In this document: positions 39,901 to 45,900 of the stretch, piece by piece | Layout: each line of letters begins with the position of its first letter | Numbering within the stretch: position 1 is the first letter of the stretch | NCBI RefSeq assembly: GCF_018991925.1 | Contig: NW_024753828.1 | Coordinates: 4,666,965-4,730,964 of the forward strand | From: Homarus americanus | Lineage: Eukaryota; Arthropoda; Malacostraca; Decapoda; Nephropidae | Direction: 5' to 3' | DNA length: 64,000 nt | The notes under the pieces: model-generated | The model's database searches: none | What the model was told of the DNA's origin: nothing | Seen by the model: only the letters and a program-made list of their open reading frames with translations | Made by a program: the position numbers and the translations under genes

Positions 39901-42900
39901 AGCAATTAATATCTTTTGTTTAGTTAATACCCAGTATGTTAAAACTCAGAGCAATAAAACTGTATACTGTACTTTTTTTGTTTTAGCTAATTAAAATGAC
40001 TTTCCAACTGTTGGTGAATAACCCACAGTCAAATTGGATATTTAGGATGTATCAAATCTGTGAGAAATTTTAAAGTTTGAGAGATAGTAACTATATATAC
40101 AGTACATACATTACATACAAATAATATCTCATGTGTCAGGGATCAAACCCAGGACCTCTGCATGGGAACAAGCAGTTCTACCACAGCACCGCAAAGACAA
40201 CTAAAAACCAACCTCGGCTCTGTTGTATTTTCACTCAAAGCATTCTCCTTCCTCTTATTCTTAAGCAACGAGAGCTTCCACTGGGGTTATGCCATTTCCT
40301 GTTCCCATACTACAGAGGTCCCTGGTTTGTTCCTTATGCGTGATATATATATATATATATATATATATATATATATATATATATATATATATATATATAT
40401 ATATATATATATATATATATATATATATATATATATATATATATATATATATATATATATATATATATATATATATATACTGTGTTGATAGATATATAGA
40501 CTCAAGTTATCAGCTGAAAAAGCTACTGTGCTAATAAATAAGACATTGTTATTTACTTGTTATATATAGTGTAATATACAAGTGACAGGTGTGTTATGTC
40601 CCAGGAGTGAGGTAAACTTCTCCAGACCTCCACCGATGGTAGCACCTCTTCCGATGTTAGCACCTCCCCAGATGGTAGCACCTCCCCCGACGTTTGCACC
40701 ACCCCCGATGTTAGCACCACCCCCGATGTTTGCACCACCCCGTGAACACCTCTCAGGAGAAACTGCTGGACCACTGCTTAAGAAACTGGTAAGTTAGTAA
40801 TTGTTGCTTTTATTGTATCATTGTCCTGGTTCCTTCCTGGTGAGTTAGTTTTATTGTTTCATTGTTCTGGTTCCTTCCTGGTGAGTTAGTTTTATTGTAT
40901 CATTGTTCTGGTTCCTTCCTGGTGAGTTAGTTTTCATTGTTCTGGTTCCTTCCTGTTTCATTGTTCTGGTTCCTTCCTGGTGAGTTAGTTTTATTGTATC
41001 ATTGTTCTGGTTCCTTCCTGGTGAGTTAGTTTTATTGTATCATTGTTCTGGTTCCTTCCTGGTGAGTTAGTTTTATTGTATCATTGTTCTGGTTCCTTCC
41101 TGGTGAGTTAGTTTTATTGTTTCATTGTTCTGGTTCCTTCCTGGTGAGTTAGTTTTATTGTTCATTGTTCTGGTTCCTTCCTGGTGAGTTAGTTTTATTG
41201 TATCATTGTTCTGGTTCCTTCCTGGTGAGTTAGTTTTATTGTATCATTGTTCTGGTTCCTTCCTGGTGAGTTAGTTTTATTGTATCATTGTTCTGGTTCC
41301 TTCCTGGTGAGTTAGTTTTATTGTCATTGTTCTGGTTCCTTCCTGGTGAGTTAGTTTTATTGTTCATTGTTCTGGTTCCTTCCTGGTGAGTTAGTTTTAT
41401 TGTTCATTGTTCTGGTTCCTTCCTGGTGAGTTAAAGACAAAGAGGAAGGTGCTGCCCTGTGGTGTGCAAAGATGAGTTGTATTTTGTCCAGACAGTATTT
41501 TAGTGGAGTTGGTGTGTGTGTGTGCGTGCGTGCGTAGCATATGTGTTGTGTGCATGTGTGTGTGTGTGTAGAGGTGGGTGATCACACATTTTTCTATGTA
41601 AATTTAATAATTCTGAGTACAGTAATGGATGGTTGATGCCAGAGCCTCTAAAGTGGGATTTATTTCTTGTGTATTAAGGAGAATGTCATTTGAACATAGC
41701 TATAGTAAGAGAATTTAACTCCACCTGCCATATAGGTTTATCACATTACTGTAGTTTGGTCAATAGTAATATTGGTTTATGGTGTGTAGAGTTGTGGCCC
41801 CACAGACCTTGTTGTCACATGTCAAGGAATTTGGCAACGTTTGATACTACAGTAAGCTCTGTTAATGTGTTCTGTTTCCCCCGGGCTGAGTGTTGTGATT
41901 GTTATTGTGTTCTATTTCCTCAGGCTGAGAGCGCTGTGATTCACCAAGATGATGCAAATGTTGCCACAGATGTTATCTCTATGCTTCTGGAGTCACTTAA
42001 AGAATTCCATGAAAAACATAGGACCCCCAGCACCGTTCATGTGAGTGTACATGTTGTGTTACATTATACCCAACCTAACCCAACTTTACCAGGGAATGCC
42101 TGGGAGGTGCTCACTGAACCAGTGACAGAAAAATGCCAGAGCTGTTATTTTTCAACTGGTAATTTCAGGTACACATACATAATTTTCTTCATTTTTTTAC
42201 TCTGTTACATTCACGCACAATCTTTTGATACATAATGTGCAAAAACATAAAAAAAATCATAATTATTATAAGGACAAAAATATAAAGGGAATAGACATTT
42301 TTTATGGACACGGGAGTTATTACGCAGACCAGGGGCTGAGCTAAACTTATAGAATATTAATGTGTTGACTCTTCTCCTCAGCTGATCTCAGAGGCTGAGC
42401 TAAACTTATAGCATAAGAATGTGTTGACTCTTCTCCTCAGCTGATCTCAGAGGCTGAGCTAAACTTATAGAATATTAATGTGTTGACTCTTCTCCTCAGC
42501 TGATCTCAGAGGCTGAGCTAAACTTATAGCATAAGAATGTGTTGACTCTTCTCCTCAGCTGATCTCAGAGGCTGAGCTAAACTTATAGAATATTAATGTG
42601 TTGACTCTTCTCCTCAGCTGATCTCAGAGGCTGAGCTAAACTTATAGCATAAGAATGTGTTGACTCTTCTCCTCAGCTGATCTCAGAGGCTGAGCTAAAC
42701 TTATAGCTGAAGCTGAGAGGCTGAGCTAAACTTATAGCATATTAATGTGTTGACTCTTCTCCTCAGCTGATCTCAGAGGCTGAGCTAAACTTATAGCATA
42801 TTAATGTGTTGACTCTTCTCCTCAGCTGATCTCAGAGGCTGAGCTAAACTTATAGAATATTAATGTGTTGACTCTTCTCCTCAGCTGATCTCAGAGGCTG

Positions 42901-45900
42901 AGCTAAACTTATAGCATAAGAATGTGTTGACTCTTCTCCTCAGCTGATCTCAGAGGCTGAGCTAAACTTATAGCATATTAATGTGTTGACTCTTCTCCTC
43001 AGCTGATCTCAGAGGCTGAGCTAAACTTATAGCATAATTAATGTGTTGACTCTTCTCCTCAGCTGATCTCAGAGGCTGAGCTAAACTTATAGCATAAGAA
43101 TGTGTTGACTCTTCTCCTCAGCTGATCTCAGAGGCTGAGCTAAACTTATAGCATATTAATGTGTTGATCAGCTGATCTCAGAGGCTGAGCTAAACTTATA
43201 GCATAATGTGTTGACTTCTCCTCAGCTGATCTCAGAGGCTGAGCTAAACTTATAGAATATTAATGTGTTGACTCTTCTCCTCAGCTGATCTCAGAGGCTG
43301 AGCTAAACTTATAGCATAAGAATGTGTTGACTCTTCTCCTCAGCTGATCTCAGAGGCTGAGCTAAACTTATAGAATATTAATGTGTTGACTCTTCTCCTC
43401 AGCTGATCTCAGAGGCTGAGCTAAACTTATAGCATAAGAATGTGTTGACTCTTCTCCTCAGCTGATCTCAGAGGCTGAGCTAAACTTATAGAATATTAAT
43501 GTGTTGACTCTTCTCCTCAGCTGATCTCAGAGGCTGAGCTAAACTTATAGCATAAGAATGTGTTGACTCTTCTCCTCAGCTGATCTCAGAGGCTGAGCTA
43601 AACTTATAGAATATTAATGTGTTGACTCTTCTCCTCAGCTGATCTCAGAGGCTGAGCTAAACTTATAGCATAAGAATGTGTTGACTCTTCTCCTCTGAGA
43701 GAATATTAATGTGTTGACTCTTCTCCTCAGCTGATCTTAGAGGCTGAGCTAAACTTATAGCATAAGAATGTGTTGACTCTTCTCCTCAGCTGATCTCAGA
43801 GGCTGAGCTAAACTTATAGCATATTAATGTGTTGACTCTTCTCCTCAGCTGATCTCAGAGGCTGAGCTAAACTTATAGCATAAGAATGTGTTGACTCTTC
43901 TCCTCAGCTGATCTCAGAGGCTGAGCTAAACTTATAGAATATTAATGTGTTGACTCTTCTCCTCAGCTGATCTCAGAGGCTGAGCTAAACTTATAGCATA
44001 TTAATGTGTTGACTCTTCTCCTCAGCTGATCTCAGAGGCTGAGCTAAACTTATAGAATATTAATGTGTTGACTCTTCTCCTCAGCTGATCTCAGAGGCTG
44101 AGCTAAACTTATAGCATAAGAATGTGTTGACTCTTCTCCTCAGCTGATCTCAGAGGCTGAGCTAAACTTATAGCATATTAATGTGTTGACTCTTCTCCTC
44201 AGCTGATCTCAGAGGCTGAGTTAAACTTATAGCATAAGAATGTGTTGACTCTTCTCCTCAGCTGATCTCGGAGGCTGAGCTAAACTTATAGCATATGAAT
44301 GTGTTGACTCTTCTCCTCAGCTGATCTTGGAGGCTGAGCTAAACTTATAGCATATGAATGTGTTGACTCTTCTCCTCAGCTGATCTTGGAGGCTGAGCTA
44401 AACTTATAGCATATTAATGTGTTGACTCTTCTCCTCAGCTGATCTCGGAGGCTGAGCTAAAGTTCAATATAGTGGTGGAACTTGAGAAGGCAGCTCAGCT
44501 AGGGAGGGCCAACTCCAATAGAGGTCATCCACACAATAAACCAGACATGAGGGATAAGAGTAACAAGAGTGAACTAGTTGACTCCAGTAAAGGTGAGTCT
44601 GACTCAGCCCAAGAGAGTCTACCAAACACTAACTCCAAGAAGAGCGAGTCGCCGCAGAGTTACGGCTCTGCCGCGCACAGTTATAACCCTACGTCGAAGA
44701 GTGACATCTCCGCTGCGCCGGATTATACGTCCCCAACAAAGAACTACGGCTCTGCCACGTTAAGTCCTGCCTCTGCAACACCAAGTTACACCTCTTCCCC
44801 CCCAGACTACTCCACTGCACCCCCAAATTACAACCCAGCAGCACAGGGATACAGCTCAGCAGCCAGTTACAGCTCAACAGGTTACAACTCTGCACCACAT
44901 GGTTACAACCCAGCAGCAGCAGGTTACAGTGCAGCACCACCCAATTTCAACCCAGCTATGCACACTTTCAACCCTGCTGCAGGTTTCTTTAACTACCCTC
45001 CAGTAAGTTGCTGAGATGCCTTATGGTAAAGTCTTGGTTATTGTCTGTATTTATTGACTTCTGTTGATCCTGAGAGTGTGTGTGTATATATGTGTGTGTG
45101 TGTGTGTGTGTCCTCTCTCATGCTCTAGAAGGCCAGCCACCCCTCTCATGCTCTTGAAGGCCAGCCACCCCTCTCATGCTCTAGAAAGCCAGCCACCCCT
45201 CTCATGCTCCAGAAGGCCAGCCACCCCTCTCATGTACTAGAAGTCCAGCCACTCCTCTCATGTACTAGAAGTCCAGCCACCCCTCTCATGCTCTAGAAAG
45301 CCAGCCACCCCTCTCATGCTCCAGAAGGCCAGCCACCCTCTCATGCTCACTAGAAGTCCAGCCACCCCTCTCATGTACTAGAAGTCCAGCCACCCCTCTC
45401 ATGCTCTCCAGCCACCCCTCTCATGCTCTAGCCAGCCAATGCCAGGCCAGCCAACCCTCTCATGCTCCAGAAGTCCAGCCACCCTCTCATGTACTAGAAG
45501 TCCAGCCACCCCTCTCATGCTCTAGAAAGCCAGCCACCCCTCTCATGCTCCAGGGCCAGGCTCCAGAAGGCCAGCCACCTCTCTCATGCATGCTCAGAAG
45601 GCCAGCCACCTCTCTCATGCTCTAGAAGGCCAGCCACCCCTCCCATGCTCTAGAAGGCCAGCCACCCCTTTCATGCTCTAGAAGGCCAGCCACCCCTCTC
45701 ATGCTCTAGAAGGCCAGCCACCCCTCTCATGCTCTAGAAGGCCAGCCACCCCTCTCAATGCTGCATGAAAATAAAAATGTAATCCAATATTCCACTTAAG
45801 AGTTTTTTTTACTTTGTTTGCAGGGGAGTGGACAGAGTTTGTTTAGTGCTCCTCCACCACCACCTCCTCCACCAGCAACATCATTATCAACATTTGGATA

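What the first reader, a model, noticed from the sequence alone, without database searches (positions are those of the whole stretch)
42322..44438. Tandem array of ~35 cloned 3' splice sites directly in front of the real exon
The 59-bp unit is not random intron sequence. Each copy reproduces a branch-like TTGAC, the pyrimidine tract, CAG and the first ~24 bases of exon o, and the array ends exactly at the true acceptor (44438). In every decoy the exon copy runs into AACTTATAG, so the preceding phase-0 exon would read LISEAELNL and stop. Choosing a decoy would delete the whole Tyr-rich tail; choosing the last gives full length. The array could titrate splicing factors, cause recursive splicing, or tune the ratio of truncated to full-length protein with copy number. 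It could also be neutral expansion; the sequence cannot decide.
Basis: partly seen in the sequence, partly recalled or inferred. Interest (0 to 1): 0.88.

Follow-up and report, generated by a model that had tools for sequence, protein, structure and literature searches.

The report
Tandem-copied splice sites in lobster gene
In an American lobster gene, the end of one intron together with the start of the next exon has been copied head to tail about 35 times (and the splice site at the start of the neighbouring intron about 15 times), a natural test of how cells pick the right splice site among identical copies; structures of this kind are known from amphioxus.

Summary
The 3' end of intron n-o of a Homarus americanus gene is a 59-bp tandem array of 36 units. 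A unit is 36 nt of intron end (candidate branch site, pyrimidine tract, CAG) plus a copy of the first 23 nt of exon o. It holds 34 decoy acceptors, 32 of them identical to the true site over -20..+3; 31 read [13 protein letters not shown], 3 [13 protein letters not shown]. Proteins of a crayfish, a spiny lobster and a mantis shrimp keep the exon's first residues, so the array was most likely cloned from the exon. Both lobster protein models that I saw join at 44439. I also found that the preceding intron starts with a 41-bp array of 16 donor copies, the real one first, and that exon n's acceptor has one decayed tandem duplicate. This is what amphioxus papers call a 'mirage': a minisatellite made from an intron-exon boundary, reported there not to disturb splicing. 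Best reading: recurrent, mostly neutral boundary minisatellites in a minisatellite-rich gene. Decoy use, if any, gives an early stop and probably mRNA decay. Recursive splicing is not supported by the sequence. A copy-number effect on splicing is possible but no transcript evidence was available.

The parts
42334..44438 (+). acceptor array: 36 units of about 59 bp (36 nt intron end + 23 nt copy of exon o start); 34 decoy CAG|CTGATC, then the true site
44262..44438 (+). the three exon-proximal decoys (acceptors at 44262, 44321, 44380): they keep the exon's G at +9, where the other 31 decoys have A, and lack the TTAAT candidate branch site
44439..45002 (+). exon o (564 nt): conserved [11 protein letters not shown] segment and Tyr-rich tail; true acceptor 44438|44439
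41924..42040 (+). exon n (117 nt, phase 0 at both ends)
40605..40788 (+). exon m; reading on past its donor gives CTG GTA AGT TAG, an immediate stop
40786..41433 (+). donor array: 16 copies of CTGGTRAGTTA (15 of them followed by G), the real donor first, period about 41 bp
41860..41901 (+). single decayed tandem duplicate of exon n's acceptor plus about the first 18 exon bases; AG lost
   Evidence: score 38, highest of 2000 shuffles 26; z 3.5
45824..45910 (+). terminal coding exon p, which puts any decoy stop upstream of a later exon junction

Best explanation
It is a boundary minisatellite ('mirage'). A short tandem duplication that spanned the intron n / exon o junction expanded by unequal exchange or replication slippage into ~36 units and was homogenised, except for the copies next to the exon. 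The same kind of event made a donor array at the start of the preceding intron and an older two-copy duplicate at exon n's acceptor. The last acceptor is used, most simply because only it begins the full 564-nt exon with that exon's own enhancers and nearby donor; upstream choices give an early stop and are probably removed by mRNA decay. The array is thus largely neutral. SHOWN: anatomy, copy relation, in-frame stops, tandem copying at three successive splice sites, use of 44439 in both lobster protein models seen. WELL SUPPORTED: direction exon to array. INFERRED: expansion mechanism, how the last acceptor wins, mRNA decay, neutrality.
For: Units equal acceptor plus exon start. The exon's first residues are kept in Procambarus (LVSEAEVKFNI), Panulirus (LLDESEVKFNI) and, less closely, Oratosquilla (LLGDVELKLKTI) proteins. 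The three decoys next to the exon keep the exon's G at +9, the other 31 have A; inner units alternate in pairs (neighbours differ by 2.38 bases on average, next-but-one by 1.08). Edge units left out of homogenisation are described for amphioxus mirages (passages, PMC3087553). Recurrence: the unit with the real donor aligns to an array unit with score 58, at most 32 with its tail shuffled; exon n acceptor duplicate 38, at most 26 in shuffles. The gene is rich in other intron minisatellites. Both lobster models seen start exon o at 44439. Mirages are reported not to disturb regular splicing, by RT-PCR for amphioxus globin and by citation for Adh and TnC.
Against: No transcript reads were available; the proteins are gene models whose support I did not see, and P0001 stands for a cluster of six sequences of which I saw one, so a decoy isoform could be hidden there. 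One of the two models (Hamer_G015650) skips exon n, the exon between the arrays, which could mean real mis-splicing, or a prediction error (that model also departs from P0001 at upstream exons). The identical -20..+3 sequence of 32 decoys gives no obvious reason why the last site should win over the one 59 nt upstream. Tandem arrays lie somewhat closer to splice sites than random placement gives: within 25 nt 3 of 15 (mean 0.50, reached in 1.2% of 20,000 placements), touching 1 of 15 (1.9%), but within 10 nt 1 of 15 (18%). The list was not blind and some exon edges are approximate.
Confidence: 0.8

Rival explanations
1. Functional splice rheostat: the decoy acceptors (and decoy donors) compete for U2AF/U2 or U1, so copy number sets the share of productive mRNA, exon n skipping, or decay-targeted mRNA.
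For: 32 of 34 decoys match the true site over -20..+3; all 34 end in a stop; arrays lie on both sides of exon n; one of two models skips exon n; in human duplicated genes tandem repeats at exon-intron boundaries can generate alternative splicing patterns (abstract and passages, PMC2812944).
Against: No transcript evidence; amphioxus mirages reported splice-neutral; both models seen use 44439.
Confidence: 0.08
2. Recursive splicing: decoys act as ratchet points that remove the intron stepwise.
For: Many acceptors in one 2398-nt intron.
Against: Ratchet points need AG|GT or a regenerated donor; the array has 0 AGGT, 0 GTRAGT, 0 GTNAG.
Confidence: 0.01
3. Reverse order: an older intronic minisatellite was exonised and exon o's start came from its last unit.
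For: The last unit runs into the exon without a break.
Against: The exon's first residues are kept in proteins of three other species, and the three exon-proximal decoys share the exon's base at +9 while the other 31 do not.
Confidence: 0.04
4. Silenced decoys: units nearest the true site lost the branch site under selection, so that the last acceptor wins.
For: The three acceptors just upstream of the true one (44262, 44321, 44380) lack TTAAT, which the true site has.
Against: 15 of 34 decoys lack it, so three in a row is expected about 8% of the time (my arithmetic); the branch site itself is inferred; 19 of 34 decoys keep it.
Confidence: 0.07

Closest known systems
'Mirages' of amphioxus (globin BflGb6/BflGb9, Adh3; also TnC and, imperfect, PGBD5)
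   Same: Minisatellite-like tandem duplication that spans an intron-exon boundary, at the 3' or the 5' side; many units carry splice signals; central units homogenised, edge units excluded; regular splicing reported (passages, PMC3087553; PMC3902484).
   Different: Arthropod instead of cephalochordate; 36 units and 16 donor copies against 6 and 3 units in the two BflGb6 haplotypes; an acceptor array and a donor array on the two sides of one exon; instability and splicing not measured here.
Human G1P3/IFI6 minisatellite with multiple splice donor sites (NAR 1995; seen only as a reference-list entry; first author Turri recalled)
   Same: By its title, a minisatellite whose units supply splice sites; closest to the donor array.
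   Different: Donors, not acceptors; per recall the extra donors are used in frame, while here extension meets a stop.
Internal tandem repeats at exon-intron boundaries of human duplicated genes (abstract and passages, PMC2812944)
   Same: Minisatellite units (about 30 bp on average) at boundaries change gene structure.
   Different: There they give new introns or alternative patterns with transcript support; about 4 copies on average.
Duplicated 3' splice-site competition constructs (Reed and Maniatis 1986; recalled, not seen)
   Same: Identical sites in cis compete; exon sequence and proximity decide.
   Different: Natural, 35 sites, each decoy with only 23 nt of exon.

Membership tests
mirage (boundary minisatellite) | tandem unit spans an exon-intron boundary | tested here: met
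   36 nt intron + 23 nt exon per unit. The donor array takes in the real donor and only 3 exon bases
mirage (boundary minisatellite) | array lies in register with the authentic boundary | tested here: met
   last unit is the true acceptor at 44439
mirage (boundary minisatellite) | homogenised units, boundary units excluded | tested here: met
   +9 base: G in the 3 exon-proximal decoys and the exon, A in the other 31 decoys; rests on 3 copies at one edge
mirage (boundary minisatellite) | authentic mRNA splices normally | tested here: inconclusive
   2 of 2 lobster protein models seen use 44439, one skips exon n; no reads
mirage (boundary minisatellite) | copy-number instability between haplotypes | not testable with these tools
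   one assembly only; the own-genome search did not complete
recursive splice sites | AG|GT or donor regenerated after the acceptor | tested here: not met
   0 AGGT, 0 GTRAGT, 0 GTNAG in the array, + strand
AKAP8/ZNF326-type zinc-finger gene (considered from memory for the host gene) | Pfam match to that zinc finger | tested here: not met
   no such match in the parts scanned; only sub-cut-off DUF5816 (E 0.055) and zf-U1 (E 0.18), and for the paralogue zf-met (E 0.12) and KIN17 finger (E 0.26)

The most novel reading that the evidence does not exclude
Two opposed splice-site arrays (16 donors before exon n, 35 acceptors after it) act as a copy-number-tunable switch: splicing factors engaged on decoys divert a share of transcripts into exon n skipping or stop-containing, decay-bound mRNA, so lobsters with different array lengths make different amounts of the protein.
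Probability: 0.07. Interest if true: 0.85.

Novelty: new member of a known kind. Interest (0 to 1): 0.5.

Why it matters
How a spliceosome picks one acceptor among dozens with identical local sequence is usually asked with built constructs; here is a natural one with 35 sites, 33 of which share -20..+3 and differ in position, in a candidate branch site and in exon context beyond +23. It also takes boundary minisatellites outside the cephalochordates: apart from human boundary repeats, my paper searches (open-licence papers only, mostly seen as listings) showed no arthropod case; the two arthropod papers among the hits that I opened are about something else. Acceptor array, donor array and a decayed older duplicate side by side bear on how introns grow and shift. 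Gene predictors and short-read mapping may fail at such loci.

Tried and rejected
Hairpin hiding of the AG: CUCAGCU can pair with GGCUGAG in each unit and at the true site, but folding energies are no better than shuffles (RNA z -0.95 to 0.46 for 4 stretches; DNA z -0.80 to -0.03 for 3); rejected as a special feature.

Homology of exon n's acceptor with the exon o unit: copy A 16 (87 of 2000 shuffles reach it), copy B 22 (7 of 2000), mostly pyrimidine tract; not claimed.

Boundary duplicates elsewhere: scan of 23 acceptors and 23 donors. Besides the three reported sites (z 3.5, 37.3, 4.2), z of 2.8 or more came from the 14000 acceptor (2.8), the 58789 acceptor (3.5), the 13618 donor (3.1) and the 37635 donor (6.8, a TAA microsatellite). 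I read these as composition or simple repeats and did not follow them up. Several 5' exon edges and a few paralogue edges in that scan were off by a few bases (the 13618 and 21332 edges by more); shuffles were mononucleotide.

Placement test: 15 arrays picked by me from the 79 rows, after merging overlapping rows and leaving out microsatellites, 5-bp runs, coding repeats, some weak or partial rows and arrays outside the two gene models. Results at 0, 10 and 25 nt are all given under evidence against; treat them as descriptive.

Motif scoring used position weights recalled by me, not a trained model. 51 other AGs in about 32 kb around (true acceptors included) reach the score of the exon o site, so that site is not strong.

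First exon of my joined protein: I started it at 21332; the deposited protein shows the exon starting at 21360, which is why the match covers 98% and not all of the query.

Other leads: exon o alone found no relative; viral contigs hold no exact copy of a 21-base piece of the unit; exon o has no megablast match in the phage collection; no Rfam family at gathering score; PDB sequences gave nothing below E 0.09. A prawn paper listed with 'alternative acceptor' concerns repeats inside an exon (passages of PMC7536079); a spider genome listed with 'mirage' means a transposon class (passage of PMC9912274).
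Full report
WHAT IT IS IN. The window is from the American lobster. A protein joined from 11 exons of the window (564 aa) matches RefSeq 'clathrin interactor EPSIN 2-like isoform X2' of Homarus americanus (P0001) at 100% identity over 98% of the query. P0001 maps back to the window in 13 stretches of 95% identity or more, covering residues 4-828 except two larger gaps that hold three short exons. The product has a zinc-finger-like segment ([29 protein letters not shown]), but no Pfam family passes its cut-off in the parts scanned, so the RefSeq name should not be taken as function.

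THE ARRAY. From 42334 to the true acceptor lie 36 head-to-tail units, 31 of them exactly 59 bp. A unit is 36 nt like the intron end plus 23 nt like the exon start; the exon part of the last unit is the exon itself. There are 35 CAG|CTGATC sites, 34 decoys and the real one, and no others on the + strand of the window (one on the - strand). 33 of the 35 share the same bases from -20 to +3. All 34 decoys hit TAG at the tenth codon, 31 after LISEAELNL and 3 after LILEAELNL; the true site reads on. TTAAT is present at the true site and in 19 of 34 decoys, and is missing in the three decoys just upstream of the true site.

DIRECTION AND HISTORY. Proteins from crayfish (P0003), spiny lobster (P0004) and mantis shrimp (P0005) keep the segment that starts exon o, the last one less closely. 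So the segment is old and the array was most likely copied from it; where those species place their introns I could not see. At exon position +9 the three decoys nearest the exon carry the exon's G and the other 31 carry A. Inner units alternate in pairs (mean difference 2.38 for neighbours, 1.08 for next-but-one). This is the pattern of a minisatellite homogenised except at its edge. No orthologous DNA was available, so I cannot say when it arose.

MORE OF THE SAME NEXT DOOR. The intron before exon n begins with a 41-bp array in which CTGGTRAGTTA occurs 16 times, 15 times followed by G, the real donor being the first; the 12-base form occurs nowhere else in the window on either strand. The stretch with the real donor aligns to an array unit over its whole length with two mismatches and a 10-nt insert (score 58; at most 32 in 2000 trials when the part behind the donor motif is shuffled). 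Any decoy donor would extend exon m into an immediate stop (GTA AGT TAG; frame). Exon n's own acceptor has one tandem duplicate that has lost its AG (score 38; at most 26 in 2000 shuffles; at most 17 elsewhere in that intron). So three successive splice sites have each been tandemly copied. The gene holds many other intron minisatellites that do not touch a splice site. Of 15 arrays that I listed, 3 lie within 25 nt of an exon against 0.50 expected (1.2% of 20,000 placements) and 1 touches one (1.9%); within 10 nt it is 1 against 0.20 (18%). The list was not blind.

HOW IT MOST LIKELY WORKS. Both lobster models that I saw start exon o at 44439: P0001 uses exon n, P0002 (Hamer_G015650) joins m to o. 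I could not see their transcript support, and P0001 stands for six clustered sequences of which I saw one. The last acceptor is the only one directly followed by the whole exon o and closest to its donor, which is the simplest reason for it to win (exon definition; established knowledge, not tested here). A decoy would give an early stop with the o-p junction downstream; such an mRNA would be expected to decay. That makes the array cheap to carry. Recursive splicing is not supported, as the array has no AGGT, GTRAGT or GTNAG. Local hairpins that would hide the AG fold no better than shuffles.

WHAT IS KNOWN. [quoted passage not shown] A globin paper reports them at both 3' and 5' boundaries, with 6 and 3 units in two haplotypes, edge units excluded from homogenisation, and RT-PCR that suggests regular splicing (abstract and passages of PMC3087553). 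A PGBD5 paper cites Adh and TnC mirages that do not generate aberrant mRNAs (passage of PMC3902484). The original Adh paper (Canestro, NAR 2002) I saw only as a reference (not held). [quoted passage not shown] not held). In human duplicated genes, repeats at exon-intron boundaries can give new splicing patterns (abstract and passages of PMC2812944). In C. elegans a minisatellite is over-represented near alternative splicing regions (abstract of PMC4039745), which keeps a regulatory role conceivable. My ten paper searches showed no arthropod case; most hits I saw only as listings, and the library lacks most subscription papers. Two arthropod papers among the hits were opened and concern something else.

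VERDICT. Observation confirmed; a member of the mirage kind by the three features that I could test, with normal splicing inconclusive and instability not testable here. Interesting for its copy number, for the two opposed arrays around one exon, and as a ready natural experiment on acceptor choice. Regulation by copy number is possible but unsupported.

Noticed in passing
50891-63633 (+): A second, paralogous gene follows: e.g. exon 59152-59220 encodes [23 protein letters not shown], like exon 31214-31282 of the first gene. Its C-terminal exons seem to lie beyond the window.
   Followed up: partly
31524-31716: 17-bp array whose unit AGGTGGGTAAGTACTGT contains a consensus-like 5' splice site (GGGTAAGT), about 11 copies, 241 nt after an exon; not in register with the real donor.
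   Followed up: partly
34939-35375: 56-bp array starting 23 nt after the donor of exon 34888-34915, without including the donor.
   Followed up: no
22466-27279: Very large intronic array, 69 bp x 70 copies.
   Followed up: no
40626-40741: 18-bp coding repeat in exon m (Pro/Ala/Met-rich), so minisatellites reach the coding sequence as well.
   Followed up: no
41924-42040: Deposited model Hamer_G015650 skips exon n although the proteins of three other species keep that segment.
   Followed up: partly
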